Shown: positions 36,430 through 52,814 of the stretch, piece after piece
How positions within the stretch are numbered: the stretch's first letter is position 1
Layout of the letters: every line of letters begins with the position of its first letter
Assembly (NCBI RefSeq): GCF_013408335.1
Contig: NZ_JACBZR010000001.1
Location: forward strand, 1,612,001-1,676,000
DNA length: 64,000 bases
DNA from: Nocardioides panzhihuensis
Lineage (GTDB): Bacteria > Actinomycetota > Actinomycetes > Propionibacteriales > Nocardioidaceae
Direction: 5' to 3'
Notes under the pieces: model-generated
Database searches by the model: none
The model's input: only the letters and a program-made list of their open reading frames with translations
What the model was told of the DNA's origin: nothing
Made by a program: the position numbers and the translations under genes

Positions 36430-37019
36430 GTGTCGGGAAAGGGCTCCTCGATCAGCGAGTAGTGCCACCACTCGCTCTCGTAGCGGCTGAACCCGCACGA
36501 CTCCATCACCGAGCACAGCTGTGACCGGTTGCGCGCCGCGACCTCGGAGACCCCGGCGGCGCCGTGGTGGGAGATCTCGTCCATCAGGTCGTGGTCGCCG
36601 GCCATGTCCAGCAGCTCGCCGGAGGCCAGATCGAAGAGGGTCAGGTCGACGGTGCTGCCGCGGCTGTGACCGGACTTCGTGGCGACGTACCCCTTCTCGA
36701 ACATCTCCGGGCGGGTGATCGCGGGGTAGTGGGCGCGCTTGCGCGCGTCGTCCGCGGGTGGGGGCTCCTCGGCCCAGCGCAGGAAGGCGTCGACGGCGCG
36801 CTGGGGGCGGTAGCCGTCCCACAGCAGGATGCCGAACCCGAGGGCTGCCGCATCGTCCCGTGCCTGGGTGAGCGCTGCGCAGAGCTCGCGGGTTCCGACG
36901 ATCCGGTTCACCAGATAGCCGTCGACGGGCTTTCCGGTGAAGTTGTCCCAGGTGGCGTACTTGGCGTCCCAGCGGATGCCGGGCACCAGTTCGTCGACGA
37001 AGGCGAACCCGTCCCTCAT
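36405..37019 (-). CDS. vanX: D-Ala-D-Ala dipeptidase VanX
   Basis: The 204-residue zinc dipeptidase removes D-Ala-D-Ala so that only D-Ala-D-Lac precursors are made. The zinc ligands are His118 and Asp125 in SGHSRGSTVD and His186 in EWWHY; catalytic Glu183 and Arg71 (WDGYRPQ) are also present, matching the VanX set. The length equals that of known VanX (about 202). Its ATG overlaps the ligase stop by 4 bases. It is the last gene of vanH-vanA-vanX. Confidence 0.92.
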   Translation of the reverse strand: MRDGFAFVDELVPGIRWDAKYATWDNFTGKPVDGYLVNRIVGTRELCAALTQARDDAAALGFGILLWDGYRPQRAVDAFLRWAEEPPPADDARKRAHYPAITRPEMFEKGYVATKSGHSRGSTVDLTLFDLASGELLDMAGDHDLMDEISHHGAAGVSEVAARNRSQLCSVMESCGFSRYESEWWHYSLIEEPFPDTYFDFPVV

Positions 37020-38092
37020 CGAGCCGTCTCCTCCAGCGCCAGGGCGACCGCGCGGTCGAGGAGCTCGGTCATCGAGATCCCGGCCGCGGCCATCATCCGC
37101 GGGTAGCGGCTGTAGGAGGTGAGCCCGGGCAAGGTGTTGACCTCGTTGAGCACCACGGTGCCGTCAGCCTTGAGGAACATGTCGACCCGCGCCAGTCCGC
37201 GGCAGCCCAGCGCGCGGTAGACCCGCTGCGCCTCGGCCTTGACCAGCGCCTGCGCCTCGGCAGGGATGTCGGCCGGCACGATGAAGGTCGCGTTCTCCGA
37301 GCCGGTCTCGGGGGCGTCCTCCTGATGGATCTTGAAGAAGCCGTGCGAGAGCGCGACGTGGTCGACCTCTCCGGTGACCAGGTCGGTGCCGTTGCCGAGG
37401 ATCGAGCAGCCGATCTCCTCGGCGACGACCCCTTCCTCGACGAGCACCTTCTGGTCGTACTGCCGCGCCGTCGCCACCGCCTCGGCCAGCTCGTCCGCCG
37501 AGGTCACCTTGCTGACGCCGAAGGACGATCCGGAGCGGGCGGGCTTCACGAAGACCGGGTAGGGGAGAGCGCCGGCGTCGCCAATGGTCTGCACAGTGTC
37601 ATCGGGGCCGAGGATCCAGAAGTTCGGCGTCGGGATGCCTGCCTCGCCGACGACCGTGTAGGCCAGCGACTTGTCCATGCACAGCGCCGAGCTCTGCACG
37701 TCGCAGCCGACGTAGGGGATCCCGGAGAGCTCGAAGAGCCCCTGGATCGCGCCGTCCTCGCCGAGCTTGCCGTGCAGGACCGGCAGCACGACGTCGAGCC
37801 GGACCGGCTCGTACTTGCCCTCGTCGAGGACGAGCAGCCCGTGGACGCTGCGGTCGGGGGAGAGCACCACCGGGCGGTGCGCGCCGTCCTCCCAGCTCGC
37901 CTCCGGCCCGTCGCACAGGCGCCAGTCGCCGCTCTTGGTGATGCCGATCCAGTACGCCTCGTACTTGTCGGCGTCGAGGTGCCTCGCCACCTCCTGGGCC
38001 GACTTCACCGAGACGGGGTGCTCCTCGAAGACGCCACCGAAGATGACGCCGACCTTGAGCCTGGGCGACTTGGACATCTTGGACTCAGACAT
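37016..38092 (-). CDS. vanA: D-alanine--D-lactate ligase (VanA type)
   Basis: The 358-residue ATP-grasp ligase makes D-Ala-D-Lac for glycopeptide-resistant peptidoglycan. VGVIFGGVFEEHPVSVKSAQE at the start and LNEVNTLPGLTSYSRYPRMM at the end are family hallmarks. The omega-loop reads SHGFFKIHQE with His256, the position where D-Lac ligases have His and D-Ala-D-Ala ligases have Tyr. ATG 38092 is used, overlapping vanH by 8 bases; ATG 38077 is an alternative. The gene lies between vanH and vanX in one operon. Confidence 0.92.
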   Translation of the reverse strand: MSESKMSKSPRLKVGVIFGGVFEEHPVSVKSAQEVARHLDADKYEAYWIGITKSGDWRLCDGPEASWEDGAHRPVVLSPDRSVHGLLVLDEGKYEPVRLDVVLPVLHGKLGEDGAIQGLFELSGIPYVGCDVQSSALCMDKSLAYTVVGEAGIPTPNFWILGPDDTVQTIGDAGALPYPVFVKPARSGSSFGVSKVTSADELAEAVATARQYDQKVLVEEGVVAEEIGCSILGNGTDLVTGEVDHVALSHGFFKIHQEDAPETGSENATFIVPADIPAEAQALVKAEAQRVYRALGCRGLARVDMFLKADGTVVLNEVNTLPGLTSYSRYPRMMAAAGISMTELLDRAVALALEETAR

Positions 38093-39131
38093 GCTGGAAC
38101 CTGCTTTCGAATTCACGACAGTTCATGATGGAGTTCTCGACCGTGTCCTGGAGGGCATGGTCGGTGAGATAGGCGATATGCGGGCTGACCAGCACGTTCG
38201 GCATCTCTTGGAGCCGCGCCAGCCAGCCGTTGGGGATCTCGCGTCCCCTCAGATCGGCATAGAAGATGCCTTCCTCGCCCTCGACGACGTCCAGGGCCGC
38301 GCCGCCCAACCGGCCCTCCTCGAGGGCCACAACGAGCGCCGGCGTCTCGATGAGCGCCCCGCGGCCGGTGTTGATGACGTACGCGCCGGGGCGCATCCGG
38401 GCGATGCGCCGCCGGTCGAGGAGATGGTGCGACTCCTCGCTGAGCGGCGCGTGGAGAGTGACCACGTCGCTGCGCTCGACGAGGGTGTCGAGGTCGACGT
38501 GCTCGACCCCCGCGGTCGCCGGGCGGGGCCGGATGTCGTAGGCGAGCACCTCGCAGCCGAAGCCCCGCAGCCGGTCGATGACCGCAGCGCCGATCCGCCC
38601 GGTCCCGACCACGCCGACGGTCAGGTCGCGCAGCTCGCGGCCCCGAGCGGTCGCCGGGCGGTAGTCGTGGGCGTCGGTGCGCCGGATCGTCGCCTTGGCC
38701 TCGCGCACCGACATCAGCATCAGCATCAGCGTGTAGTCGGCCACCGAGTCGGGTGAATAGGCGACGTTCCCGACCGTCATCCCGATGTTCGCCGCGAATT
38801 CGACGTCGATATGGTTGAATCCCACGCTTCGCGTCGAGACATATCGCACCCCTGCCCTTTTCAGGGCCAGGAGCGTCGCATTCGATATCGGCGTCTTATG
38901 GCTCACACTGACGCACCGGTTTCCGCGGGCCAGCTCGGCATTGTCCGCATCGACCGCCTCGGGCGTGGTGGTCAGGGAGACGCCGAGCGTGGGTGCCAGC
39001 GACTCGAAGAGTCCCTTCTCGTCGGGTGCGCAGCCGTAGACCGCGATCTGGAAGGCCGACGAGATCGAGGTCGGATGTGTCGGATGTGTCGGTTCTGTCA
39101 GTGCCGTCAGGGTCGGTTCGTGGTTGATCAT
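38085..39131 (-). CDS. vanH: D-lactate dehydrogenase VanH
   Basis: The 348-residue D-2-hydroxyacid dehydrogenase reduces pyruvate to D-lactate for the ligase. The core begins FQIAVYGCAPDEKGLFESLAP, as in VanH, after an unusual Thr/Pro-rich N-terminal extension of about 25 residues (TALTEPTHPTHPTSISS). The Rossmann motif is GVVGTGRIGAAVI, the catalytic Arg is in INTGRGALIE and the His in VSPHIAYLTDHA. ATG 39131 is the assigned start; the true start may be further in. It opens the leftward van operon and is divergent from murF. Confidence 0.92.
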   Translation of the reverse strand: MINHEPTLTALTEPTHPTHPTSISSAFQIAVYGCAPDEKGLFESLAPTLGVSLTTTPEAVDADNAELARGNRCVSVSHKTPISNATLLALKRAGVRYVSTRSVGFNHIDVEFAANIGMTVGNVAYSPDSVADYTLMLMLMSVREAKATIRRTDAHDYRPATARGRELRDLTVGVVGTGRIGAAVIDRLRGFGCEVLAYDIRPRPATAGVEHVDLDTLVERSDVVTLHAPLSEESHHLLDRRRIARMRPGAYVINTGRGALIETPALVVALEEGRLGGAALDVVEGEEGIFYADLRGREIPNGWLARLQEMPNVLVSPHIAYLTDHALQDTVENSIMNCREFESRFQHV

Positions 39132-39178
39132 CGCCGCCAGCAAACTCCATGAGCAGTTGCGGGCCCGTATGGATTTTC

Positions 39179-39236
39179 CGATATGCCGGCGATAGGTGGT
39201 TCGGCGATCTCGGGCGCGGTTATCGTCCGCATATCG
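39179..39236. promoter_or_regulatory. Putative VanR-box pair between vanH and murF
   Basis: CGATATGCCGGCGATAGG at 39179-39196 recurs in inverted orientation at 39219-39236 (reverse complement CGATATGCGGACGATAAC), with 14 of 18 bases identical. A related motif (TACATCGGCGATATGT) precedes vanR. The conserved core is GATA....CGGCGATA. The shared sequence is seen; VanR binding is inferred. Confidence 0.5.
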
Positions 39237-39282
39237 TTTAGCGCATACGCGCCGACAACACCGGATCTCGAAGACTGATGGG

Positions 39283-40626
39283 ATGATTCCCCTCAGCTTG
39301 GACGAAATAGCCTCGTTGGTCGGCGGGAAGGTCGTCGGCGACGGCTCCGTGACGGTGAACGCCCCGGCCGTGATCGACGGCCGCGCGGCGGATCCCGGCG
39401 GCCTCTTCGTCGCGTTCGCCGGTGAGCACGCCGACGGCCACGAGTACGCGCCACAGGCGGCCGCGGCCGGCGCCGTCGCCGCGCTCGGCTCGCGCCCGAC
39501 AGCCCTCCCGACCGTCGTCGTCGAGGATGCGCAGGCCGCGCTGCAACGCCTGGCCGCCCATGTCGTCTCGATGCTGCGCGAGGAGATGACCGTGGTCGCG
39601 GTCACCGGCTCCCAGGGCAAGACCAGCACCAAGGACATGATCGAGGCCGTGCTGTCGACCGCTGCGCCGACCGTGGCGACCTCAGGGTCGTTCAACAACG
39701 AGCTCGGCGTACCTCTCACCATGCTGCGCGCCGACAGGACCACGAGGTTCCTCGTGCTCGAGATGGGGGCCCGGCACATCGGCGACATCGCCGAGCTGAC
39801 CGGCCTGGTCGCGCCGGACATCGCCGTCGTCACGAACGTCGGTCAGGCACACCTGGGCGAGTTCGGGTCGCGCGAGGCGATCGCTGTGGCCAAGAGCGAG
39901 CTGGTGCGCGGGCTCGCTGCCGGCGGCACGGCCGTGCTCCACGCCGACGACCCCAGAGTGCTCGCGATGTCCGAACTCACCGACGGTCCGGTGCTGGCCT
40001 TCGGCGCCGGTGACTGCGCGAGCGTACGCGTGTGCGGCCTGTCCCTGGACCGGCTCGGCCGGCCCTCGTTCACGTTGCGTTACGACGGCGACAGCGCTGT
40101 CGTCAGGCTCCCGTTCGTCGGCGCCCACTGGACGCTCAACGCCGCGGCCGCCGCGGCAGCGGGCCTGACCGCCGGGGTCCCCCTCGAACAGGCCGCGACC
40201 GCCCTGAACACCGCCTCGATCTCGAAGTGGCGCATGGAGCTGCGCGCCCTCGACAGCGGCGCGACCCTCCTCGACGACTCCTACAACGCCAACCCCGAGT
40301 CCACCCGTGCCGGCCTGGACGCGCTCGCCTCGATCGACGCCAAGCGCCGCATCGCCGTCCTCGGCGAGATGCTCGAGCTCGGCGAGGCGAGCCGCGACGC
40401 CCATCACGAGATCGGGACGTACGCAGCGACCCGGGCCGACCTCGTCATCACCATCGGCGAGGCCGCCGCCGTCATCGCCGACGGCGCGGGGGAGAGGGCC
40501 CTCGCGCTGCCCGACAACGCCGCCGCCATTGCTTGGCTGCGGAGCCACGTTGCTTCCGGCGACGTGGTCCTCGTCAAGGCCTCACGCGGCGCCCGCCTCG
40601 ACGAGGTCGCCGCGGCACTAGGCTGA
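39283..40626 (+). CDS. murF: MurF-type UDP-MurNAc-tripeptide--D-alanyl-D-X ligase, second copy
   Basis: The 447-residue Mur ligase adds the terminal dipeptide or depsipeptide to UDP-MurNAc-tripeptide. The ATP loop is [12 protein letters not shown] (about 107), [12 protein letters not shown] is a MurF-type specificity loop, and [18 protein letters not shown] is diagnostic of MurF. Its position beside vanHAX, with a shared candidate VanR-box, indicates a dedicated copy that would accept D-Ala-D-Lac, as in some glycopeptide-producer clusters. The RBS is weak. A small hairpin (TAGGC-TGAT-GCCTA, 40619-40632) overlaps its stop. Confidence 0.87.
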
Positions 40627-40903
40627 TGCCTAAGGCTCTGACGGCACTATCAGGGTGCGACGCGGTAAGCAGGTGGTCGAACGCCGCGCGCTCTCGACCT
40701 GCTTGGCGTAGTCTCCTCAACGTTGCTCCGCGGATGTCGAACACCCGACCACGGGGCCGAAACTTGAGATTTTACGTTTATATACGGCGCTCGCGGGTAT
40801 GAGCACATCGTGAACAAACCTGTGACGACAATTCTCGGGAGACTGCTGTGGTAGAGACTGTTAGCAGTTTTGCACACCCAGTCTCGGGTGGAGGCTGGGC
40901 GCG
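40627..40903. other. Intergenic junction between murF and the type VII substrate genes
   Basis: This 277-base gap has an A+T-rich patch (about 40765-40790, containing TTTATATAC) unlike the surrounding DNA. No gene, terminal inverted repeats or target duplication was seen, so no mobile-element end can be claimed. It marks the point where composition changes towards the type VII genes. Confidence 0.4.
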
Positions 40904-41422
40904 ATGAGCGAGCCGACTCTTCAAACGGACATCGAAAGGCTCTACACGGCAGGCAAGGAACTCATGCCTGCCGCCGCAGATCGCCTGTCCAAGCTTGCCG
41001 GAGATGTTTCAGGTCAGCTTGAGGTGCTCAACCAGCAAGCAGCGCTGGCGGGAGATCCCGCGATTCTCCGTACGATGCTCGGCGTAGGCAACGACGTCTA
41101 TGACGTCGTCCGCCAGGGTGTGATCTCGCTCAACCACGCCGCCACAGCGATGATCAAGACGGCTGACGACTACCGGAGGACGGACCAAGCCGCCCGCGAT
41201 GACTTCAACCGACTGGAGAACAATCTTCAGAACGCGCCGCAACCACGCGCCGCCGACACTCCACCTTGGCTGGCCAAACTTGAGGGCCCCGGCGCCGGTG
41301 CTGGAGACGAAAACACCCCCTCCACTCCAGACCCCGATGCGCCTAGCGTAGATGCCGACCAGCGCGAGGAGAACGAAGAGAACAGCGAGTTCGAGCACGA
41401 GCGCCAGAAGCGGAGGGGGTGA
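40904..41422 (+). CDS. WXG100/EspC-like type VII secretion substrate
   Basis: The 172-residue protein has a helical N-terminal half that ends in ADDYRRTDQAARDDF, in which Y-R-R-T-D is the YxxxD export signal of ESX/type VII substrates. The C-terminal 60 residues are low-complexity, Pro/Gly- then Glu-rich (QREENEENSEFEHERQKRRG). This matches the EspC/ESX-associated group. Codons are less GC-biased than in flanking van genes. The next gene follows 4 bases later, so the two are co-transcribed and could be secreted as partners. The function is otherwise unknown. Confidence 0.75.
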   Translation: MSEPTLQTDIERLYTAGKELMPAAADRLSKLAGDVSGQLEVLNQQAALAGDPAILRTMLGVGNDVYDVVRQGVISLNHAATAMIKTADDYRRTDQAARDDFNRLENNLQNAPQPRAADTPPWLAKLEGPGAGAGDENTPSTPDPDAPSVDADQREENEENSEFEHERQKRRG

Positions 41423-41426
41423 GACC

Positions 41427-42602
41427 ATGGCATTCTCGCGCGACACATTCGAGCAGACCTTGCGGGATATCGAGACTCACCTCGGCTACCTTCGCGGCAA
41501 CGAGAACGCGTGGAAGTACCTCCGCGAGATTCAACAGGATTCTGTCGGGAGCGAACACCCGCTTCTCACCGTGATGCGACTCGACGACGGATACTCGTTT
41601 CCCTGCCCTGAGGGGCGGTTCAAAGTCGAGCCGTCACGGACCTGGTGGCTCGATATCCGCACACCCGCTGACACCACGTTCGACGTGGAAAACTACCGCA
41701 AGCTCATCCAGCGGGGAGCCGACATGGCTTGGCAGGACGGCGCTGCGTGGGCATCCGGGGTTGCAGGCTACGCCACGAGTGTGTGTAACCAGTTCCTGCA
41801 ACCCGACGTGCCTGCGATGGTCAGCACCATTCTCGAGATGCAACGCAACGCAGTGGTCCCGCTGACCCAGGCAACGGTCGACGACTGGGCGAAGCTCGGT
41901 ACATTGCCAACGCAATGGCACGGCGAAGCTGGCAACGCCTTCTACGAGTTCTACAGCAATTACAACGAGTCGATCGGAATCTGCGGCACGTTCCTGGGCA
42001 TGGTCACGTTTGGGTTCTCTGCTGCCGCGAAGATCATCAGTGGCACCCAGTTCGGCGCCCAGTTCTTTTTGGACTCCGTTCTTGAGGGTCTCAAAGCCCA
42101 ACTCGATCAATGGGCGCACTACGACCTCGAGCCACCCGAACCCGCAGATGTCCCCACCTGGGTCGCGGACATTCAACAGATCGGCAGTTCCGCTCTGGAC
42201 CTGCTCGCTGACACTGTCCCGGTTGTCGGCGACGCGGTTCAAAAGGTGACTGACTTTCAGGGTCATGTCGACAAGGCCCGGGCGCTGATCAAGGACATCG
42301 AAGATGTGTCGGGCAAGGATTTCCTTCCTGAGAAGCACACACGCATCGAGGTGAAGACGGCCGAGCAGATCTACACCGGCCTCACTGAAACCCTTTACAA
42401 CGACTACTACAGCGCCTACAACGACGCGCTCGACAGCCTGCAAGCCGGGGGAACAGGCAGCAGCGTGCCGGATCCCAACGACCTCGCCGGCAGCGCTTAC
42501 AGCGGTGATGGCGTTGAGACCCAGATGCACGTCCTGCGGGACCAGATCCAGCTCCCGCAGGTTCCGGACAGAAGCCTTCGCGGAGAGGATTCGTACAATT
42601 AG
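41427..42602 (+). CDS. Large WxG-containing type VII-associated protein
   Basis: The 391-residue protein has a central helical region containing QWHGEAGNAFYEFYSNY, where W164-H-G166 is a WxG turn between two helices, then a hydrophobic stretch (LGMVTFGFSAAAKIISGTQFG) and a helical C-terminus. The N-terminal 90 residues (AFSRDTFEQTLRDIETHLGYLRG ...) are not recognised. ATG 41427 follows CGGAGGGGG at good spacing. The pattern fits a type VII effector or chaperone-substrate of unknown activity; no toxin motif is visible at its end. Confidence 0.72.
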   Translation: MAFSRDTFEQTLRDIETHLGYLRGNENAWKYLREIQQDSVGSEHPLLTVMRLDDGYSFPCPEGRFKVEPSRTWWLDIRTPADTTFDVENYRKLIQRGADMAWQDGAAWASGVAGYATSVCNQFLQPDVPAMVSTILEMQRNAVVPLTQATVDDWAKLGTLPTQWHGEAGNAFYEFYSNYNESIGICGTFLGMVTFGFSAAAKIISGTQFGAQFFLDSVLEGLKAQLDQWAHYDLEPPEPADVPTWVADIQQIGSSALDLLADTVPVVGDAVQKVTDFQGHVDKARALIKDIEDVSGKDFLPEKHTRIEVKTAEQIYTGLTETLYNDYYSAYNDALDSLQAGGTGSSVPDPNDLAGSAYSGDGVETQMHVLRDQIQLPQVPDRSLRGEDSYN

Positions 42603-43860
42603 GTTCAACAGGCCATCCGCGCTCACCCGCCTTGCACGGCCGGGACGTTCCTCTCTCGGTGCCTGCGGCGCGCTTCTCGTGGGTGGGCTTGTTCTCGCCG
42701 CGTGTGGGACACAAGCTGACCCGGATCCAGAACCCACAGCAGGGAAGTCGCTCTCGCTGAGTTGGCAGGTGGCACTCGATCAGCCGAACGCGTTCACTCT
42801 CAACGACTTGTCTACGCGTGGCCGATTCGATCTCGGACCAACCCGCTGGGTGACCGACGACTCAGTGATCTCACTCGGAGCGACAGAACTGGTCTCGTAC
42901 GATCTAGCGAGCGGGGACAAACGGTGGACGGCCGGAATCCCCGGCGGTGAGATCTGCGCCGCGTCGTTCGATCTCACCTCTGACGGGACTGGCGCCGTGC
43001 TGTCAGGCGAGCGCTGCACAAAGGTCACCACCTTCGACACGAGCACTGGGAAGCAAGTCTGGTCGGCCGATTCAGGGCTGAACAACCCCTCGGGTGGCAA
43101 CCCACATCCCGCTGGCACGAACGGCATCTCGGTGACCGACGAAGCGGTCACCGTCACCAGCCAGTGCAGTGGCGCGGCAACCCTCGACATGGGGTTCGGA
43201 GCAGTCCGCCATACGTTCCCTGGCGCCGACTGCACAGCAACGGCGTCGTACGAGAATGTCGTGGTCTCGGGCACCCGTGGTCAGAACGCGTACGAGACCT
43301 ATGGCGCCGAGACGGGTGACCAGTTGGCTTCGTTCAGTGGCGCGCCGGTACCCGCAACGCCATGGCGGGTGGTCAGCGCAGACCCCCTCGTCGTAGCTGG
43401 CACCGGTGGGAACGTCTTCGGGCTATGGTCGCTGCGCGGGGGAAAGGTGACCCAGGTGGGGGAGACGGTGAACTCGCTCCCGCCCGAGACGATCCGCTTC
43501 GCGCAAGTCGTCGGCGAGCGCCTTTACGTCATGCTGAACGAGAGCACGTTGCTCAAGGTGTATGACTTGACGGATGGACGAGAAGTGGCGACCAGCAAAC
43601 TGGCTGAGGGCGAGTCTGTCGCGGGCGTGGATGGCGCCACGGTCATCACTGTCGGGCCAACCTCCGGGGACGCGCCGACCAACGCGGTCGTGCATGCCTG
43701 GAATCCGGACGACCCCGACCACGTCACCACGCTCGCGACGATCCCCGGGGGTGCGACCGAGCCGGACGGTCTGAGTACGCTCGACGGCACGTTGAGTCTC
43801 CACGACAGGTGGCTGCTGATCGGATACAAGGAATTGCGCGCCTATAGGTTGCCTGGATGA
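42508..43860 (+). CDS. PQQ-like beta-propeller lipoprotein with uncertain start
   Basis: The protein has a lipoprotein signal (LLVGGLVLAACGTQ) followed by a repeat-rich beta region with PQQ/quinoprotein-like blades, such as LVSYDLASGDKRWTAGIPG and VTTFDTSTGKQVWSAD. It is probably surface anchored. The start is unusual: the first in-frame ATG/GTG codons (42508/42505) lie 95 bases inside the preceding gene and put the signal peptide far from the N-terminus. A properly spaced GGAGAGG (42582-42588) instead points to an ATT codon at 42598, overlapping the previous stop. It probably belongs to the type VII operon. Confidence 0.68.
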   Translation: MALRPRCTSCGTRSSSRRFRTEAFAERIRTIRFNRPSALTRLARPGRSSLGACGALLVGGLVLAACGTQADPDPEPTAGKSLSLSWQVALDQPNAFTLNDLSTRGRFDLGPTRWVTDDSVISLGATELVSYDLASGDKRWTAGIPGGEICAASFDLTSDGTGAVLSGERCTKVTTFDTSTGKQVWSADSGLNNPSGGNPHPAGTNGISVTDEAVTVTSQCSGAATLDMGFGAVRHTFPGADCTATASYENVVVSGTRGQNAYETYGAETGDQLASFSGAPVPATPWRVVSADPLVVAGTGGNVFGLWSLRGGKVTQVGETVNSLPPETIRFAQVVGERLYVMLNESTLLKVYDLTDGREVATSKLAEGESVAGVDGATVITVGPTSGDAPTNAVVHAWNPDDPDHVTTLATIPGGATEPDGLSTLDGTLSLHDRWLLIGYKELRAYRLPG

Positions 43861-43945
43861 GGTGACGACCGGGCGCCTGTTTGCGCACCGATGCGCGGCC
43901 ACGGGGCGCGAGACGGACCAGTTGCGACGGCGGGTCTGCGTCCGA

Positions 43946-44557
43946 TCAGGAGGCAGGTTCGAAGGTCGACATCACCTGATTGATCATCTCATCAATCTGC
44001 TTGCGATCGACCATGCCGCGGTTGAACATCCATAGGACACCGACAAGTTGTCCATTGTGGACCGTCCCGTACTCGTCGACCCACTGGGCGTCATTCTCGC
44101 CGCGGACGTGGTAAAAGCGGACCCCGCCGAGAGTCACGTCTGGAAGGCGCTCGACCTTGTCTTGGCCAGCTTTCTTCGAGAACTTCAGCGATACCTCGGC
44201 GGCGCTATCGATAGCATCGTCCGAGTCAAGTGTCGGGTTTGACGTGAAAGTCCCGCCACCTACACGAGCCCCGCCTTCCCGCTGGGGCGGCGCCTGCAAC
44301 TCGAGCCCGGTGGGTCCCTCCTCGACGTCCCAGTCTGGCGGGACGAAGAACTGGCCCCCGTCGTCCTTGGCTGGGTGCCATCCGGCATTCGGCTCAGAAG
44401 GACTCGCCGATGCCGGGCTGGTCGGGCTTGCGGACGTGGCGCCCTCGCCAGCGTCCTCGGTCGAGCCGCATGCGCTCAACGTCATGCCTAGAAGCGTGAT
44501 GGCAACAACAGCAGAGACTGAAACCATGTGGCGGGTCCGCGCCCGAGTTGTCGGCAT
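43946..44557 (-). CDS. Secreted lipoprotein of unknown function
   Basis: The 203-residue lipoprotein has a signal peptide ending in lipobox TLSACGS and then a Ser/Pro/Ala-rich linker (ATSASPTSPASASPSEPN). The folded part (about 70-203, FFVPPDWDVEEGPTGLELQAPP ... MINQVMSTFEPAS) resembles LpqN/Mog1-like lipoproteins, which in mycobacteria are linked to envelope biology, but this is tentative. ATG 44557 is preferred because the signal peptide then begins properly. It is the only leftward gene within the type VII block and converges with the propeller gene. Confidence 0.7.
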   Translation of the reverse strand: MPTTRARTRHMVSVSAVVAITLLGMTLSACGSTEDAGEGATSASPTSPASASPSEPNAGWHPAKDDGGQFFVPPDWDVEEGPTGLELQAPPQREGGARVGGGTFTSNPTLDSDDAIDSAAEVSLKFSKKAGQDKVERLPDVTLGGVRFYHVRGENDAQWVDEYGTVHNGQLVGVLWMFNRGMVDRKQIDEMINQVMSTFEPAS

Positions 44558-44744
44558 GGTGGCGAGCGTAGCGAGCCGCAGTCGAGGCCGCGAGATGCAA
44601 CGCTGAACCAGGACGTACAACGTCGTGGACAGGATGATGACCGTCCTGCAAAATGCGTAATTGAAGGTTGATGGGTCCCGGGTCACCGCCTCGACAGCGC
44701 GTTCGGTCGACGCTTCAACACATGCGCCATCTGAGGGGGATTCC

Positions 44745-45218
44745 GTGGGGAGCGGGAAAGAGACCAAGGTCGATCAAGAGATTGTCGACAGTATGAAGAA
44801 CATGCTTGTCGACATGAAGGTCGACGTCGACAAACTGCGGGTGGAGGCGCCACGTCCGGGACTTCTCGGGCAAGGCGCGACTGGCGAGTCACTCAAGACT
44901 CAGCTCGATCTCGCGACCGAGCGGATCAGCAGCACGCTGTCACACCTTTCGGACGCTCTGATCAAGTTCTACGACGGAACTGACCGCGCAGCCAAAGAAA
45001 TCACAGGCGCAGATGGAGACGCCGGCGATTGGGGCAAAGCATTGAGCGCGGGCGTTGCGATGGTGAGCCAGCCGCTCCATATGGGCTTGGGCGAGGACGA
45101 TCGTCCTGATGCACTGCCTCTTCCGATCCCCTTCCTGCCGATACCGCCTGGACTGCTCCAGGAGATGCAATCGCGCGCCGAGATCATGGGCTCCTCGTCC
45201 GTAGAGGACGGTGCCTGA
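44745..45218 (+). CDS. YxxxD-motif type VII secretion substrate
   Basis: The 157-residue protein is helical with FYDGTDRAAKE near residue 83; Y-D-G-T-D matches YxxxD, the type VII export signal, after a helix-turn-helix-like hairpin. The C-terminal part is hydrophobic/Pro-rich (PLPIPFLPIPPGLL). GTG 44745 follows GAGGGGG at 44733; the longer frame upstream is rejected. Its stop overlaps the ATG of the next gene by one base. It is probably the small partner of the large protein that follows. Confidence 0.72.
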   Translation: MGSGKETKVDQEIVDSMKNMLVDMKVDVDKLRVEAPRPGLLGQGATGESLKTQLDLATERISSTLSHLSDALIKFYDGTDRAAKEITGADGDAGDWGKALSAGVAMVSQPLHMGLGEDDRPDALPLPIPFLPIPPGLLQEMQSRAEIMGSSSVEDGA

Positions 45219-46621
45219 TGGGGGCCGTTGATGGTGGAGGCGGTGTCGGCCGGGTCAAGGGCCCGCACATGATTCGCCTGCAGCAATACCTCCTGGCAGC
45301 CGATGCGCAAGACATCGACGCACACGTCACCAACTGGCGCAGGTCCGAAAGGCTGTTTCGGGCTGCTGCTACGCAGTTCACGACCCTGGCAAAGGGATGT
45401 GGGGACGCTTTTGCCGAGTCCTCCTTTACGGCTCAGAGGGCCGCGAGCTCGTACAACGAGGCGTCGGAGCAGATGCTCGAGAAGGCGGCTACGATTGCGG
45501 CAGCCTGCGCCGCGATGTCGCGCGTTGCGGAACGATACGACCGAGCCAAGCAGAAGTATGACTTCCACGAGGCCAACTTGCCGACCTCCCACGGCGCGGC
45601 GCCGAGCGCATCCGACCCGGCGTACACGACCGAGGGTCACACCGGGGCCGAGAAGGCGAGTCGCGAGAGTGCGCTGAGCGAGGCGAAGGCAAAGCACGCG
45701 GCGGAGGCGCAGGCGATCGCGGATGCCGAGCGGGAGGCGGCCATCCAGTGCCAGCAGATCGATGACGGCAATCAGGAAGCCGAGCCGAAGGTGCGGGCGA
45801 TCACGGAGCCGCCGTCGTCGACGGCGCCCGGGTCGAACGGCAGCGGTGGCTCGGGCAGTTCGTCCGGGGGCTATTCCAGCCCGGGCTCGCGCAGCGCGGT
45901 CGCCGCGGCTCAGGCGAAGTACGACTCGGTGAACCCGGGCACGCTCTACGCCGAGGGCGAGGGACACCAGATCCGGGCAGAGCAGAAGGAGATCATCAGG
46001 CAGGCCCACGCCGAGAACATCCCGGAGTGGGACAACGCCGCCGGAGTGTGGGTCAACGCTGATGGCTCTCCTGCACCGGCAACGAACTACGCCAGCATCG
46101 AGACCGCGGAAGGTCTGGCACCGCTCGGCGGTGGCGCCGGCGGAGCGGCTGCGCTTGGGATCGGGCTCGGCGGCGCCGGGCTCGCGGTCGGCGCCGCCGC
46201 GGCGCTGAGGGCCAAGTTCGGTGCCGGAGCGGCAGCAGCCGCCGGCAAGGTCGGTGCCGCCAGCAGCCCGGCGAGGGCCGCCGCCGGAAGGGCGGCCAGC
46301 ACGGCGCCGAGGGTCGGAGCCCCCGGCCAGGCTGCACGATCGGGTGCCGCTGGCGCGCGCGGCGCAGGAGGCCGAGCCGGAGCCGGCGCCGGCGGTCGGG
46401 CTGCGGCCGGTGCGGGCAGCCGTGGCCAGATGCGTGGCGCAGGTGCCGGAGCGGCCGGTCGCGGAGGTAGGGGCAAGGACAAGCAGAGCGGCGATCCGGA
46501 CCTCGACTTCGTGGCCGACTACTCGGCGGACTACAGCGACGAAGAGTACGAACGCCTTCTTGCGCTGAAACGCTTCGACGACGAGCAGAAGCGGCAGCTC
46601 CGCAACCGACCAGACGCGTAG
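45218..46621 (+). CDS. Large PPE/EspE-like, Gly/Ala-rich type VII-associated protein
   Basis: The 467-residue protein has a long helical N-terminal domain (about 1-180) with WRRSERLFRAAATQF and a YDFHE motif (YxxxE) at about residue 113. A Ser/Gly linker follows (GSNGSGGSGSSSGGYSSPGS), then a Gly/Ala/Arg-rich low-complexity region (about 295-430) with a possible membrane segment (GGAAALGIGLGGAGLAVGAAAAL), and an acidic tail (DYSADYSDEEYERLL). It resembles PPE/EspE-like ESX substrates in layout, not in closely matched sequence. It is coupled to the preceding YxxxD gene. Confidence 0.68.
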   Translation: MGAVDGGGGVGRVKGPHMIRLQQYLLAADAQDIDAHVTNWRRSERLFRAAATQFTTLAKGCGDAFAESSFTAQRAASSYNEASEQMLEKAATIAAACAAMSRVAERYDRAKQKYDFHEANLPTSHGAAPSASDPAYTTEGHTGAEKASRESALSEAKAKHAAEAQAIADAEREAAIQCQQIDDGNQEAEPKVRAITEPPSSTAPGSNGSGGSGSSSGGYSSPGSRSAVAAAQAKYDSVNPGTLYAEGEGHQIRAEQKEIIRQAHAENIPEWDNAAGVWVNADGSPAPATNYASIETAEGLAPLGGGAGGAAALGIGLGGAGLAVGAAAALRAKFGAGAAAAAGKVGAASSPARAAAGRAASTAPRVGAPGQAARSGAAGARGAGGRAGAGAGGRAAAGAGSRGQMRGAGAGAAGRGGRGKDKQSGDPDLDFVADYSADYSDEEYERLLALKRFDDEQKRQLRNRPDA

Positions 46622-46635
46622 CCAGCACGGCCGTA

Positions 46636-46670
46636 CGGTCTGGTGCGGTCAGACCGACCGCACCAGACCG
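46636..46670. terminator. Strong bidirectional terminator between the type VII block and vanZ
   Basis: CGGTCTGGTGCGGT and ACCGCACCAGACCG are perfect 14-base arms around 7 bases. The hairpin overlaps the vanZ stop and follows the type VII gene by 15 bases. It marks the boundary between the island and the second van segment. Confidence 0.8.
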
Positions 46671-47221
46671 TTGCTGTTCGCCGTGCTCGGTGCGGTCGCG
46701 GTGCACTGCCGCCACCAGGGCCACGACAAGATCGCGGCGACGGTGGCGCCGCCGGCGTTGAGGAGCACATCGTCGATGGAAGAGACCCGGTCCAGGCGCA
46801 GGGTGTGCTGCAGGGTCTCGATCGTCACCGACCCGGCGATGCCCAGGACGAGGACCCGCCCCACCGAGCGCAGCACCCGGAATCGGATCGGGCCGAAGAA
46901 GCCGGCCGCGGCGAAGATCAGCAGGTTGCCGACGACGCCGATGGGCGTCATGGTCGGCAGATCCTCGAGCGGCACCAGGCTCACGCTGCCGTCGACCTGA
47001 CCGGCCATCGGGCCGGGGACCATCGTCAGCAGTACGAACGGCACGGTGCCGTAGACGATCGCGACCTCGGCCAGCGACGTACGCCATGCCCGGCCCGGCG
47101 CCAGACCGAACCCCCGGCGCAACAGCGCCAGGAGCGGCACCGCCGCCATCGCCACGGGCAGCGCCAGGATGGTGAGCAGGGCGATGCCCATGAAGGTGAG
47201 TGAGCCCGATTCGTTCATCAT
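46649..47221 (-). CDS. vanZ: VanZ-family membrane protein
   Basis: The 190-residue membrane protein has four or five helices and the VanZ core: VGNLLIFAAAGFFGPIRF, then SVTIETLQHTLRLDRVSSIDDVLLNAGGATVAA. VanZ proteins raise low-level teicoplanin/lipoglycopeptide resistance by an incompletely known mechanism. Its first ATG shares one base with the vanK stop, so vanK and vanZ form a leftward operon. It ends within the strong hairpin shared with the island. Confidence 0.82.
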   Translation of the reverse strand: MMNESGSLTFMGIALLTILALPVAMAAVPLLALLRRGFGLAPGRAWRTSLAEVAIVYGTVPFVLLTMVPGPMAGQVDGSVSLVPLEDLPTMTPIGVVGNLLIFAAAGFFGPIRFRVLRSVGRVLVLGIAGSVTIETLQHTLRLDRVSSIDDVLLNAGGATVAAILSWPWWRQCTATAPSTANSNGLVRSV

Positions 47222-48351
47222 CACTGGTTCCGCCGTCTCATGTAGAGGTCGAAGGCCCGATAGACGATCGGGCGCAGCGGCAGGTCCCACTCGCCGACGT
47301 ACCTCACCGCCTGCCCGCCGGTGCCGACCTTGAACTGGATCAGTCCGACGTGGGAGTCGTCGGTGGACAGGGTCGGGGTGATGCCGCGCAGGTCGTAGAC
47401 GTCGCAGCCGGCGGCCAGCGAGTCGCGGATCATCGCCCACTGACAGGCGTTGGAGCCGCGTACGTCCCGTTTCGTCGTCGACGAGGCGCCGTAGACGTAC
47501 CAGGCGTGGCCGCCGACGCGGACGTAGATCGTCGCTGCGACCAGGTCACCGTCGTGATGGGCGAGGTAGAGGCTGATCCGTGCGGGGTCTTCGGCTCTCA
47601 GCGCCGTGAACATCTTCTCGAAGTAGGCCAGCGGCCTCGGCGTGAACCGGTCGCGCTCGGCGGTGTGGACGTAGAGGTCGTGGAACGCCTTCAGGTCCTC
47701 CCCACCGGTCGAGGCGGTGACCTCGACGCAGGCCTTGGCGGCCTTCTTGATGTTGCGCCGCCAGAGCTGGTTCATCCCGGTGAGCACGTCGTCCTCGGAA
47801 CGCGCCGTCCCGTCCGGGCGGCGCAGCGGGATCTCGTACGTGAACTGCGGCTGCCCCGCCCCGAACCCGCTCTCGGGGTTCTGCGGGATCCAGCCGGAGT
47901 CGCACAGATACCGGGCCACGTCGTTGCCGACCGGGTCGGCGCGCCCGGGCAGATCGGTGAGGCGGACGACCCCCGGGTCTGCGATGCCCTCCTTGACCTC
48001 CGCGGCGCTCCAGATGTCGGTCCGCACCGGGGGAGCGACCCGGATCGCGAACGCGCCCTGCGAGCGCAGGTAGGAGACCAGCGGCGGCATCCAGACGGTG
48101 AGCCCACCGGCCCAGTCGATGTCCGGCCCCCACGGAAGGTACGCCAGCGTGTAGCCCAGCCGCGGCACCGGCCGGTGAAGCACCAGCCCGGTTCCGGCGA
48201 GCCGCTCGCCGGCGTACCAACCCAGCGACTCGGCACGCCACTCGGTCTTCACCGCGGCCCAGGCCGGGGTCTGCTGGAAGCTGACCGAGCGCCGCGACCT
48301 GATGTGGTCGAGGTGCTCGGTGGAACTGATCGGTCTGACGGTGAAGGTCAC
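47221..48351 (-). CDS. vanK: FemXAB-family peptidyltransferase VanK
   Basis: The 376-residue FemX/FemAB-like enzyme would add the branch amino acid, glycine in Streptomyces coelicolor VanK, to precursors ending in D-Ala-D-Lac. Motifs are RRSVSFQQTPAWAAVK at the start, LAYLPWGPDIDW, WRRNIKKAAKACVEV in the middle, VYGASSTTKRDVRGSNACQWAMI and VGLIQFKVGTGGQAVRYVGEWDLPL at the end. GTG 48351 is used; TTG 48363 is an alternative. It is divergent from vanR across about 85 bases that contain the candidate VanR-box. A glycine bridge would suit the LL-diaminopimelate peptidoglycan of Nocardioides. Confidence 0.87.
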   Translation of the reverse strand: MTFTVRPISSTEHLDHIRSRRSVSFQQTPAWAAVKTEWRAESLGWYAGERLAGTGLVLHRPVPRLGYTLAYLPWGPDIDWAGGLTVWMPPLVSYLRSQGAFAIRVAPPVRTDIWSAAEVKEGIADPGVVRLTDLPGRADPVGNDVARYLCDSGWIPQNPESGFGAGQPQFTYEIPLRRPDGTARSEDDVLTGMNQLWRRNIKKAAKACVEVTASTGGEDLKAFHDLYVHTAERDRFTPRPLAYFEKMFTALRAEDPARISLYLAHHDGDLVAATIYVRVGGHAWYVYGASSTTKRDVRGSNACQWAMIRDSLAAGCDVYDLRGITPTLSTDDSHVGLIQFKVGTGGQAVRYVGEWDLPLRPIVYRAFDLYMRRRNQ

Positions 48352-48398
48352 CCTGCCAGTCAACCTGGATGGGTGTCGTCAGGGCATATGCCGTTTCG

Positions 48399-48430
48399 GA
48401 TACATCGGCGATATGTCATCGACCTAGGAT
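48399..48430 (+). promoter_or_regulatory. vanR promoter with putative VanR-box
   Basis: TACATCGGCGATATGT at 48401-48416 shares 12 of 16 bases with TATGCCGGCGATAGGT (39182-39197) at vanH/murF. It ends 8 bases before TAGGAT at 48425-48430, a -10-like box 7 bases before the vanR ATG. The message is probably leaderless and the box sits where an OmpR-type activator would contact the -35 region. Confidence 0.5.
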
Positions 48431-48437
48431 CATTGGC

Positions 48438-49103
48438 ATGCGGGTGCTGGTGGTCGAGGACGAGCCGTTGATGGCTGAGGCCATCCGGGACGGATTGCGG
48501 CTGGAGGCGATCGCCGCCGACATCGCCGGTGACGGCGACACGGCTCTGGAGATGCTGAGCGTGAACGCCTACGACATCGCCGTGCTCGACCGCGACATCC
48601 CCGGTCCCTCGGGCGACGAGATCGCCAAGCGGATCGTCGCCTCCGGGACCGGGATGCCCATCCTGATGCTCACCGCCGCCGACCGGCTCGACGACAAGGC
48701 CTCTGGGTTCGAGCTGGGTGCCGACGACTACCTGACCAAGCCGTTCGAGCTGCGCGAGCTGGTGCTGCGGCTGCGGGCCCTCGACCGGCGGCGCGCCCAC
48801 AACCGGCCGCCGGTGCGGGAGATCGCCGGCCTGCGGATCGACCCGTTCCGGCGGGAGGTCTATCGCGACGGCCGCTACGTCGCGCTGACCCGCAAGCAGT
48901 TCGCCGTGCTCGAGGTGCTCGCCGCGGCCGAAGGCGGCGTCGTCAGCGCCGAAGAGCTGCTGGAGCGGGCGTGGGACGAGAACGCCGACCCGTTCACCAA
49001 CGCCGTTCGCATCACCGTCTCCGCCCTGCGCAAGCGGCTCGGCGAGCCGGCGATCATCGCGACCGTGCCGGGCGTGGGATACCGCATCGATGTCGACGCC
49101 TAG
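48438..49103 (+). CDS. vanR: Response regulator VanR
   Basis: The 221-residue OmpR-family regulator has receiver domain 1-115 with phospho-acceptor Asp51 (AVLDRDIPGPSGDE) and Thr/Lys residues further along (MLTAAD; LTKPFE), then a winged-helix DNA-binding domain. From memory, stretches such as DGLRLEAIAADIAGDGDTAL and LLERAWDENADPFTNAVR closely match Streptomyces coelicolor VanR. It would activate the van operons when VanS senses a glycopeptide. It overlaps vanS by 14 bases. Confidence 0.9.
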   Translation: MRVLVVEDEPLMAEAIRDGLRLEAIAADIAGDGDTALEMLSVNAYDIAVLDRDIPGPSGDEIAKRIVASGTGMPILMLTAADRLDDKASGFELGADDYLTKPFELRELVLRLRALDRRRAHNRPPVREIAGLRIDPFRREVYRDGRYVALTRKQFAVLEVLAAAEGGVVSAEELLERAWDENADPFTNAVRITVSALRKRLGEPAIIATVPGVGYRIDVDA

Positions 49104-50214
49104 CGAAACGGGTCGCCGACGCCCGGGGATGAGCGTCAGGCTCAAGCTGACGTTGAGCTACGCCGGCGTCATCGTGGTCACCGGTGTCCTGCTGCTCGCG
49201 GTGGTGTGGGTCTTCCTGCTGCGCTACGTACCTGACGGAGTATGGGTGCAGTGGCCGCAGGAGCCTGGACGGCCGAGCGCACCCTTCGTCCCCAACCGCT
49301 CCGACCTGGAGCGTGCCTTCGTGCCGCGGGCGGCCATGATGATGGCCGGCCTGCTCGTGTTCGGGCTGGTGGGAGGCTGGATCCTCGCCGGACGGATGCT
49401 CGCCCCGTTGACCAGGATCACCGAGGCGACGCGTACGGCCGCCGACGGGTCGCTCTCGCACCGAATCGAGCTCGAAGGTCCCGGCGACGAGTTCCGTGAG
49501 CTCGCCGACGGATTCGATGACATGCTCGCCAAGCTCGAGGCGCAGGTGGCCGAGCAGCAGCGGTTCGCCGCCAACGCCTCCCACGAGCTGCGTACGCCGC
49601 TGGCGATCACGCAGACGCTGCTCGACGTCGCCGGCAAGGACCCCGACCGCAACGTCGAGGCGCTCGTCGACCGGCTGCGCCTGATCAACTCCCGCGCGAT
49701 CGACCTGACCGAGGCTCTCCTCGTGCTCAGCCGCGCCGACCAGCGCTCCTTCGCCCGTGAGCCGGTCGATCTGTCACTGGTGGCGGAGGAGGCGGTCGAG
49801 ACACTGCTGCCGCTCGCCGAGCACCGCGGGGTGCGGATCGAGACCTCTGGCGACCAGGCTTCGGTCATCGGCTCTCCGGCACTCCTGCTGCAGGTCGCGA
49901 CCAACCTGATCCACAACGCGATCGTCCACAACCTGACCGAGGACGGGTCGGTGTCGGTCACCGTCGTCGCCACCGAGAAGAGCGTGGTCCTCTCCGTCGC
50001 GAACACCGGCGAGGAGCTCGCTCGTGAGCTCGTCGCCACGCTCACCGAGCCGTTCCAACGAGGCACCCAGCGCATTCACGGGGACCAGGCCGGCGTCGGT
50101 CTGGGGCTGGCGATCGTCAAGAGCATCACCCGCGCCCACGACGGCAACCTCGCCGTGCTCGCCCGCTCCGGTGGTGGGCTGCGGGTCTCGGTCGAGCTGC
50201 CCCGGGCTGCCTGA
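49090..50214 (+). CDS. vanS: Sensor histidine kinase VanS
   Basis: The 374-residue kinase has two membrane helices (about 22-44 and 82-101) flanking a short extracellular loop of about 35 residues, a HAMP region, the H-box RFAANASHELRTPLA with His165, and an ATPase domain (LIHNAIVHN; GVGLGLAIVKSI). The layout and much of the core resemble Streptomyces coelicolor VanS, while the extracellular loop (WVQWPQEPGRPSAPF) looks different, so its inducer range may differ. ATG 49090 is used; ATG 49129 is an alternative. Confidence 0.9.
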   Translation: MSTPSETGRRRPGMSVRLKLTLSYAGVIVVTGVLLLAVVWVFLLRYVPDGVWVQWPQEPGRPSAPFVPNRSDLERAFVPRAAMMMAGLLVFGLVGGWILAGRMLAPLTRITEATRTAADGSLSHRIELEGPGDEFRELADGFDDMLAKLEAQVAEQQRFAANASHELRTPLAITQTLLDVAGKDPDRNVEALVDRLRLINSRAIDLTEALLVLSRADQRSFAREPVDLSLVAEEAVETLLPLAEHRGVRIETSGDQASVIGSPALLLQVATNLIHNAIVHNLTEDGSVSVTVVATEKSVVLSVANTGEELARELVATLTEPFQRGTQRIHGDQAGVGLGLAIVKSITRAHDGNLAVLARSGGGLRVSVELPRAA

Positions 50215-50236
50215 TCCGGCCGCGGCCACGCCCGCG

Positions 50237-50998
50237 CTAGGCCGGCGGCTTGCGGGCTTCGAGGAGATGGCGGGTGGAGTGTGCGACGAACGGCCCGTCC
50301 CGCTGGATGAGGTCGTGGAGGTCGCGAAGTCGGTCACGGTGCTTCTCGACGGTGAATCCCGGCACCCACCAGATCACCTTCCGCAGCAGGTACACGACGG
50401 CCGCGACGTCACGGATCTCGATCCGCAGCCTCGCGGTCTGCAGGTCGACGATCTCCAGCCCGGCGGCCTCTGCCGCTGCTGCCTCGTCTTCGGGACGGCG
50501 TCCTCGCCGGGCCTCGGGCTGGGGGCCGAGGAAGAACTCGATCAGCTCGAACACGCTCGCCGGGCCCACGTGCTGGGCGAAGTAGATCCCGCCCGGCCGG
50601 AGAACCCGGGCGATCTCGTCCCACCAGATCGACGCGGGATGCCTGCTGGTCACCAGGTCGAAGCCCTCGTCTGCGAACGGCAGCGGCGGCTCGTCCGGGT
50701 CGGCGACGACGACCACGCCGCGCGGATGCAGCAGTCGGGTCGCCTCGAGGACGTTGGGCGGCCACGACTCCGTCGCCACCGCGGTGGCGGGAAAGGTCCT
50801 CGCTTCGGCAAGGACCTCCCCGCCGCCGGTCTGGATGTCCAGCGACGCCGCTGCCCGCCTGAGCCGGTCGGCGAGCTGCCGGGCGTACCCCCAGCTGGGG
50901 CGCTCCTCGGTGGCCCGACCGTCCAGCCACGAGAAGTCCCACCCGGTCACGTCGGCGGCTGCCCCTGCTGCGATCAACGACTCGAAGGTGTCGGTCAT
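50237..50998 (-). CDS. Class I SAM-dependent methyltransferase
   Basis: The 253-residue protein has the Methyltransf_11-like order: a QTGGGEVLAE motif I-like turn (about 57), PFADEGFDLVTSRHPASIWWDEIARVLRPGG (motifs II-III, about 110-140) and a helical C-terminus. The substrate is unknown. ATG 50998 is preferred with GGGGAG about 9 bases upstream. It converges with vanS with a 22-base gap, and no van-related role is implied. Confidence 0.82.
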   Translation of the reverse strand: MTDTFESLIAAGAAADVTGWDFSWLDGRATEERPSWGYARQLADRLRRAAASLDIQTGGGEVLAEARTFPATAVATESWPPNVLEATRLLHPRGVVVVADPDEPPLPFADEGFDLVTSRHPASIWWDEIARVLRPGGIYFAQHVGPASVFELIEFFLGPQPEARRGRRPEDEAAAAEAAGLEIVDLQTARLRIEIRDVAAVVYLLRKVIWWVPGFTVEKHRDRLRDLHDLIQRDGPFVAHSTRHLLEARKPPA

Positions 50999-51019
50999 GG
51001 CCACATTCTCCCCTCTCGG

Positions 51020-51490: not shown

Positions 51491-51531
51491 GGCTCGATGA
51501 TAGACAGATTGCCTAGCGTCGTACGGCGATA

Positions 51532-52814
<1,283 letters not shown>

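What the first reader, a model, noticed from the sequence alone, without database searches (positions are those of the whole stretch)
40904..46621. Type VII (ESX-like) substrate island inside the van locus, without secretion machinery
Two small proteins carry YxxxD signals (DDYRRTDQ and FYDGTDRA), each followed by a large coupled partner: one with a WxG turn, one PPE/EspE-like with a Gly/Ala-rich tail. Two lipoproteins accompany them. No EccC, EccB, EccD or mycosin gene is present. Composition is visibly less GC-biased than the flanks. This could be an undescribed secreted or surface system acquired into a cell-wall resistance locus.
Basis: partly seen in the sequence, partly recalled or inferred. 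Interest (0 to 1): 0.7.

Follow-up and report, generated by a model that had tools for sequence, protein, structure and literature searches.

The report
Swappable type VII secretion cargo islet
Between two genes of a soil bacterium's vancomycin-resistance cluster sits a small, foreign-looking block of genes that appears to encode cargo for the type VII protein-export machine encoded elsewhere in the same genome; relatives have nothing, or different genes, at the same spot, so the place looks like an insertion site rather than part of the resistance system.

Summary
A and B (40904-42602) look like a type VII cargo pair: A directly precedes B in 26 of 26 loci examined (of 42 matched places); A's [FY]xxxD keeps D in 25 of 25 rows and the aromatic in 24; B's WxG tryptophan is kept in 26 of 26; a B profile finds Esx-type structures in WxG register, best E 5e-4. 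E-F is weaker: E's YxxxD is in 3 of 17 relatives and F's fold search is inconclusive. A lipoprotein gene (D) accompanies F at 22 of 22 loci in nine genomes. The genome holds an ESX cluster about 3.85 Mb away. A link to vancomycin resistance is not supported: among nine genomes with this van locus the murF-vanZ junction is empty in 3 and differently filled in 6, and a conserved van-promoter element is absent from the islet. Best reading: exchangeable type VII cargo modules inserted at a hot spot and exported by the resident ESX machine, with lipoproteins as envelope partners, possibly immunity proteins. No experiment supports export or function.

The parts
40904..41422 (+). A: 172-aa small helical protein with [FY]xxxD export-type motif (Y90, D94)
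   Evidence: D94 in 25 of 25 rows, F/Y at -4 in 24 of 25; weak EsxB match E 0.43, below designed helical proteins; dN/dS 0.09 against N. luteus
41427..42602 (+). B: 391-aa partner with a WXG100-like core (about residues 125-210, W164) inside a larger protein
   Evidence: W164 in 26 of 26 rows, G166 in 22; Esx-type structures matched in register; model mean pLDDT 77.2, pTM 0.73; dN/dS 0.10
42590..43860 (+). C: lipoprotein (LVLAAC lipobox) with a BamB/PQQ_2-like stretch; start uncertain, possibly ATT at 42590
   Evidence: PQQ_2 E 1.9e-5, below cut-off; relative in N. luteus contig 73; dN/dS 0.18
43946..44557 (-). D: lipoprotein (LSAC lipobox), divergent from E-F
   Evidence: Lipobox cysteine invariant in 22 rows; at least one D beside 22 of 22 full-length F genes in nine genomes; sub-threshold TIGR03931 match in 18 of 22 rows
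44745..45218 (+). E: 157-aa small helical partner of F; its YxxxD is not a family feature
   Evidence: 17-row alignment; Y in 3 of 17 rows, D90 invariant
45218..46621 (+). F: 467-aa protein: long-helix N-terminal part, conserved middle, Gly/Ala hydrophobic segment (about 312-330), basic Gly/Ala-rich tail
   Evidence: 24-row alignment, model, hydrophobicity
39283..40626 (+). murF of the van locus: left flank of the insertion site
   Evidence: TIGR01143 over cut-off
46649..47221 (-). vanZ-like gene: right flank of the insertion site
   Evidence: PF04892 over cut-off; converges directly with murF in G146, G218 and G001
39176..39194 (+). Conserved van-promoter element (vanH-murF gap)
   Evidence: identity as VanR site is inferred
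48395..48413 (+). Second copy of the element (vanK-vanR gap), 3 mismatches to the pattern

Best explanation
The block is an exchangeable islet with two cargo modules, placed in the convergent 3'-3' gap between murF and vanZ of a Nocardioides van locus. Module 1: A and B pair as a WXG100-type helical heterodimer; A's [FY]xxxD and B's WxG form a composite export signal read by the resident EccC (shown: conservation of both motifs and gene coupling; inferred: pairing and export). Module 2: E and F pair, F bringing a long-helix domain and a Gly/Ala-rich hydrophobic segment; probably also type VII cargo (inferred, weaker). Lipoproteins C and D sit on the outer membrane face and act with, or protect against, the exported proteins (inferred). 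The machine is the ESX cluster about 3.85 Mb away on the same contig. The van location is incidental: a site where gene cassettes have been inserted and replaced (shown by comparison).
For: A directly before B in 26 of 26 loci, gaps -4 to +25 nt; both motifs conserved. Seven of 11 solved sequences matched by the B profile at E up to 10 are Esx-type or align to the same stretch, best E 5e-4; WxG on WxG in the four such alignments printed. ESX genes in the genome: EccC over cut-off, EccB and one EccD over cut-off, WXG100 pair, subtilase. D beside F at 22 of 22 loci. Empty junction in 3 of 9, different contents in 6 of 9. Foreign composition. Purifying selection.
Against: No secretion or binding data. 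E's YxxxD is not conserved. Fold searches for F and B found nothing at E up to 0.001; BAR-type proteins rank above PPE for F. A's profile reaches EsxB only at E 0.43, below designed helical proteins, and the second-best match of the B profile is a phage tape-measure protein. Mycosin (TIGR03921) is below cut-off everywhere in the genome, the first EccD is below its cut-off, and EccE was not looked for. EccC presence is uninformative because 198 of 215 genus genomes have it over cut-off.
Confidence: 0.55

Rival explanations
1. Antibacterial effector-immunity cassettes (a sharper form of the best explanation): B and/or F are exported and act on competitors' envelopes; C and D are immunity lipoproteins, as TilA protects from TslA in S. 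aureus.
For: D next to each of 22 F genes, two full copies at 5 loci plus degenerate copies; in G061 a D persists beside a truncated E copy; lipoproteins evolve faster than A-B; the site also takes a restriction enzyme in G015; lipoprotein immunity has a precedent (PMC10730906, passages).
Against: No toxin domain found; F's C-terminal part is the conserved part, the opposite of polymorphic toxins; no full-length D away from an F in nine genomes, so no orphan immunity genes; by a strict rule only 6 of 26 A-B loci have a lipoprotein neighbour.
Confidence: 0.25
2. Part of the glycopeptide response: the proteins work on the cell wall under VanRS control.
For: Position between murF and vanZ; D-E-F kept there in three genomes of the group.
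Against: Junction empty in 3 of 9 genomes with an otherwise intact van locus; the van-promoter element (up to 3 mismatches) lies only at 39176 and 48395; no shared 8- to 11-mer of the two van promoters in the islet gaps tested; D-E-F and A-B relatives lie at many non-van sites.
Confidence: 0.05
3. E-F-D is an envelope-remodelling module unrelated to type VII secretion; only A-B is type VII cargo.
For: No conserved YxxxD in E; BAR-type proteins lead F's fold list; no family or convincing solved-structure match for E and F.
Against: Small-plus-large overlapping gene pair as in type VII partners; PPE41 and PPE4 are also in the fold list; sub-threshold type VII-associated match of D.
Confidence: 0.35
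4. Chance ORFs or decaying genes.
For: Low coding score with the window's own codon model.
Against: A-F intact; dN/dS 0.09-0.27 in nine comparisons, like murF (0.19) and vanK (0.25).
Confidence: 0.02

Closest known systems
WXG100/Esx heterodimers (EsxA-EsxB)
   Same: Adjacent gene pair; one partner with WxG, the other with [FY]xxxD after a helical hairpin; B profile matches EsxA-type structures in register.
   Different: B is 391 aa with the WXG core in the middle; Pfam WXG100 matches only 6 of 26 B relatives at E up to 0.1, best 0.0023, and not the window's B.
LXG toxins with Lap partners; TslA with TlaA and TilA (T7SSb)
   Same: Small helical partner plus large cargo plus, for TslA, a lipoprotein gene often in several copies (PMC10730906, passages).
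   Different: Actinomycete with an ESX-type EccC; no toxin domain recognised; gene order and families differ.
PE-PPE and EspE/EspF-type pairs (mycobacterial ESX)
   Same: Small-large pair, long-helix N-terminal part and Gly/Ala-rich tail in F.
   Different: No family match for E or F; fold comparison inconclusive.
Rv3446c-type (TIGR03931) and LpqN-type lipoproteins
   Same: D relatives match TIGR03931 in 18 of 22 rows, best E 5.4e-5.
   Different: The window's D scores 16 bits against a cut-off of 47.6, over its first half; identity with this family is not shown.

Membership tests
WXG100-type type VII substrate pair (A-B) | WxG turn in one partner | tested here: met
   W164 in 26 of 26, G in 22 (S in 4); register with Esx structures
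WXG100-type type VII substrate pair (A-B) | [FY]xxxD in the partner | tested here: met
   D 25 of 25, F/Y 24 of 25
WXG100-type type VII substrate pair (A-B) | Curated WXG100 model over cut-off | tested here: not met
   No Pfam/NCBIfam match over cut-off for A or B
WXG100-type type VII substrate pair (A-B) | Export dependent on EccC | not testable with these tools
   needs a mutant
Type VII substrate pair (E-F) | Conserved YxxxD in the small partner | tested here: not met
   3 of 17 rows
PPE/EspE-type (F) | PPE-like fold or family match | tested here: inconclusive
   PPE41 rank 27, E 0.55, TM 0.44 by target length; BAR-type proteins rank higher; no sequence match
Polymorphic toxin system | Variable C-terminal toxin domain | tested here: not met
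   F's C-terminal part is conserved; no toxin domain in B or F
Immunity lipoprotein (C, D) | Signal peptide with lipobox | tested here: met
   Read in C; cysteine invariant in 22 D rows
Immunity lipoprotein (C, D) | Binds and neutralises the cognate effector | not testable with these tools
   needs binding and toxicity assays
VanRS regulon | Promoter element shared with vanH/murF and vanK/vanR | tested here: not met
   Element absent from the islet at up to 3 mismatches; that it is the VanR site is inferred

The most novel reading that the evidence does not exclude
Nocardioides uses its ESX-type system in contests between bacteria: A-B and E-F are two undescribed substrate families, carried as effector plus immunity-lipoprotein cassettes that are traded at a fixed chromosomal offence/defence site which happens to lie in a vancomycin-resistance locus.
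Probability: 0.25. Interest if true: 0.8.

Novelty: new variant of a known kind. Interest (0 to 1): 0.5.

Why it matters
Type VII substrates outside mycobacteria and Bacillota are poorly catalogued (recalled). Here a pair family without a curated model (B profile in 36 of 215 genus genomes at E up to 1e-3; 4 of 396 across the phylum, one of them the own genome and three weak) can be recognised by gene order and two motifs. If it is exported, it gives cargo for ESX systems whose EccC is over cut-off in 198 of 215 genomes of the genus. It also warns against reading function from position in a resistance locus: the murF-vanZ junction is an insertion site.

Tried and rejected
Tie to vancomycin response: rejected on empty sites and the missing promoter element. 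The first pattern matched only at vanK-vanR; the second was read from the vanH-murF alignment, so its match there is by construction, and the informative match is the one at vanK-vanR with 3 mismatches (0 of 100 shuffles reached two matches).

Co-occurrence with EccC: uninformative (198 of 215 over cut-off).

Structure comparison: Foldseek gave nothing at E up to 0.001 for F or B; only the 50 best rows were seen. The second aligner was not available.

Plasmid or phage origin: no match of B in plasmids or phages, nor of F's N-terminal part in plasmids; A, C, D, E were not tried and F was not tried in phages. No tRNA at 36000-52000 and no direct repeat of 16 or more bases at 40400-47000.

Lipoproteins beside A-B: a strict rule gave 6 of 51 neighbours against 6 of 261 other genes (one-sided p 0.006), 6 of 26 loci. 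The rule missed C itself; by eye I count 13 of 26 loci, which is unsystematic.

Rows dropped: of 42 matched places, 26 entered alignment A4; 16 were left out (weak, split between frames, near-duplicates, or not fetched). A5 has 25 A rows; A6 has 17 E rows; A3 has 24 F rows; A7 has 22 D rows, all picked from fetched loci.

Literature: eight searches; no listed title describes these families or this site. PMC10730906, PMC12744356, PMC8698665: passages; PMC10434224: abstract and outline; all others: listing only.
Full report
Setting. The window is G000:C1:1612001-1676000 of a 6.3-Mb genome. Its closest named relative found is Nocardioides luteus BAFB, so the genus is taken to be Nocardioides. Families confirm a van locus: VanX, D-Ala-D-Lac ligase, VanH-like, MurF, VanZ, FemAB/VanK-like, VanR-O-like and VanS-O-like (the VanH, VanR and VanS names are below NCBIfam cut-offs). 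Between murF (ends 40626) and vanZ (ends 46649, minus strand) lie six genes, A to F.

Real genes, foreign composition. dN/dS is 0.09 (A), 0.10 (B), 0.18 (C), 0.27 and 0.27 (D), 0.20 and 0.14 (E), 0.24 and 0.16 (F), against 0.19 for murF and 0.25 for vanK. Three of the islet's one-kb blocks are the lowest in GC of all 64, and GC3 of all six genes is below that of each of the 56 other called genes (the caller was trained on GC3-rich ORFs, which raises the comparison set). E, F and D paralogues elsewhere in the genome are also low in GC3 (0.71-0.79), while the eccC and esx genes are at 0.90-0.92 and eccB at 0.83; B genes of four other Nocardioides genomes are at 0.96-0.99, so low GC3 is not a property of the B family.

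A-B is a type VII pair by anatomy. A profile of six B relatives matched 36 of 215 genus genomes at E up to 1e-3. In the 26 loci aligned in A4 (of 42 matched places) an A-family gene lies directly upstream of B in 26 of 26, with gaps of -4 to +25 nt. A's D94 is invariant in 25 of 25 rows and the residue four before it is F (15), Y (9) or L (1). B's W164 is invariant in 26 of 26; G166 is G in 22 and S in 4. Of 11 solved sequences matched by the B profile at E up to 10, seven align to the WXG stretch: 4lws (listed as uncharacterised; an Esx protein by recall, 5e-4), two S. aureus EsxA entries (0.017, 0.018), 3zbh EsxA (0.03), SAG1039 (0.15), gbs1074 (0.21) and MAB_3112 (0.52); the four of these printed show WxG on WxG. 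The second-best match, a phage tape-measure protein, covers the part after that stretch. A's profile reaches secreted EsxB at E 0.43, below designed helical proteins. In 396 genomes across the phylum the B profile matched four: the own genome and three weakly over the WXG stretch. Pfam WXG100 touches 6 of 26 B relatives, best E 0.0023.

D-E-F is a stable module of less certain kind. F's N-terminal part matched 13 of 215 genus genomes, among them all nine that share this van locus. In those nine there are 22 full-length F genes and two fragments, and 27 full-length D genes; each F has at least one D beside it, five loci have two, and no full-length D lies away from an F (the other 40 D-profile matches are degenerate copies, mostly N-terminal signal-like stretches, and one C-terminal-half match at G217:C1:632809, E 3e-9). 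The own genome has three such modules. E's YxxxD occurs in 3 of 17 rows; D90 is invariant, with V, I, M, A or L four before it. F's model has long helices with block pLDDT of 71-93 over residues 11-200 and disorder over 288-436. Foldseek found no match at E up to 0.001; BAR-type proteins rank above PPE41 and PPE4. Along F the N-terminal part varies and the middle and tail are conserved.

Machinery. EccC (TIGR03924) is over cut-off at C1:5510487-5512547; a second EccC-like, FHA-bearing gene lies at about 5491115. Near the first are two EccD-like proteins (one below cut-off), EccB, a WXG100 pair and a subtilase. No mycosin match is over the TIGR03921 cut-off, and EccE was not looked for. The islet is about 3.85 Mb away along the contig.

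The site is a hot spot. Nine genomes carry the VanK-like protein at 85% identity or more; the next is at 73%. In G146, G218 and G001 murF and vanZ converge directly, the called genes overlapping by 45 bp. G175 and G061 have D-E-F at the same place (85% and 78% nucleotide identity); G175 also has an unrelated PQQ_2-like gene and G061 a second D, a truncated E copy and an alkyl-sulfatase gene. In N. luteus the gap holds a distant A-B pair (B about 22% identical) and a lipoprotein gene in the opposite orientation, while its close A-B-C relative (83% nucleotide identity over 2.9 kb) is on a 3.4-kb contig of unknown place. G015 has a type ISP restriction enzyme, a 105-aa protein, a 386-aa protein with a weak N-terminal WXG100 match (E 0.021, below cut-off) and a 219-aa protein; G217 has a MerR-type and a DUF6194 gene. 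So 3 of 9 are empty and 6 filled. Of the six I class five as type VII cargo-like: A-B type in two (window, N. luteus), D-E-F in three (window, G175, G061), and the weak WXG100-like protein in G015.

No sign of van control. The vanK-vanR and vanH-murF gaps of the nine genomes show conserved blocks. A pattern from the second matches the window only there (39176-39194) and, with 3 mismatches, at 48395-48413; 0 of 100 shuffles reached that. No 8- to 11-mer shared by the two van gaps occurs in the three islet gaps tested. That this element binds VanR is inferred.

Mechanism. Most likely A and B form a helical pair whose WxG and [FY]xxxD make a composite signal for EccC; E and F probably do something similar; C and D act on the outer face as partners or immunity proteins. 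Precedents: the lipoprotein TilA neutralises the type VII toxin TslA (PMC10730906, passages); membrane proteins ExiCD protect from the glycine-zipper toxin EsxX (PMC12744356, passages); TelE is another glycine-zipper effector (PMC10434224, abstract). F and some B relatives carry Gly/Ala-rich hydrophobic stretches, but the window's B and F show no long glycine zipper there. Against a simple toxin reading stand the lack of a toxin domain, the conserved F tail and the lack of orphan D genes. Export, pairing and activity are untested.

Verdict. A known kind of system, undescribed substrate families, and a documented insertion site.

Noticed in passing
39176-39194 and 48395-48413: A conserved element shared by the vanH-murF and vanK-vanR gaps of nine genomes; a candidate VanR binding site.
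   Followed up: partly
42574-42602: No ordinary start codon gives C a normal signal peptide; an ATT overlapping B's stop (ATTAG), after a GGAGAGG, is kept in window and N. luteus and may be C's start.
   Followed up: partly
L119:4558-11956: In G015 the same junction holds a type ISP restriction enzyme beside a 105-aa and a WXG100-like 386-aa protein and a 219-aa protein: defence and possible cargo side by side.
   Followed up: partly
L026:13036-13848: Two WXG100 genes with the same length, score and sequence ends lie in tandem next to a second, FHA-bearing EccC-like gene of the own genome.
   Followed up: no
L088:6006-7690: G061 keeps two D genes with a truncated E copy between them: a trace of module duplication and loss.
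   Followed up: partly
L120:4825-5598: In G217 a MerR-type gene at the junction ends in residues like those of vanZ of its relatives, as if the insertion lay in the vanZ end.
   Followed up: no
L021:1-3362: The close A-B-C relative of N. luteus is alone on a 3.4-kb contig, so its place in that genome is unknown.
   Followed up: no
L090 and L091: The own genome holds two further D-E-F modules away from the van locus, also low in GC3.
   Followed up: partly
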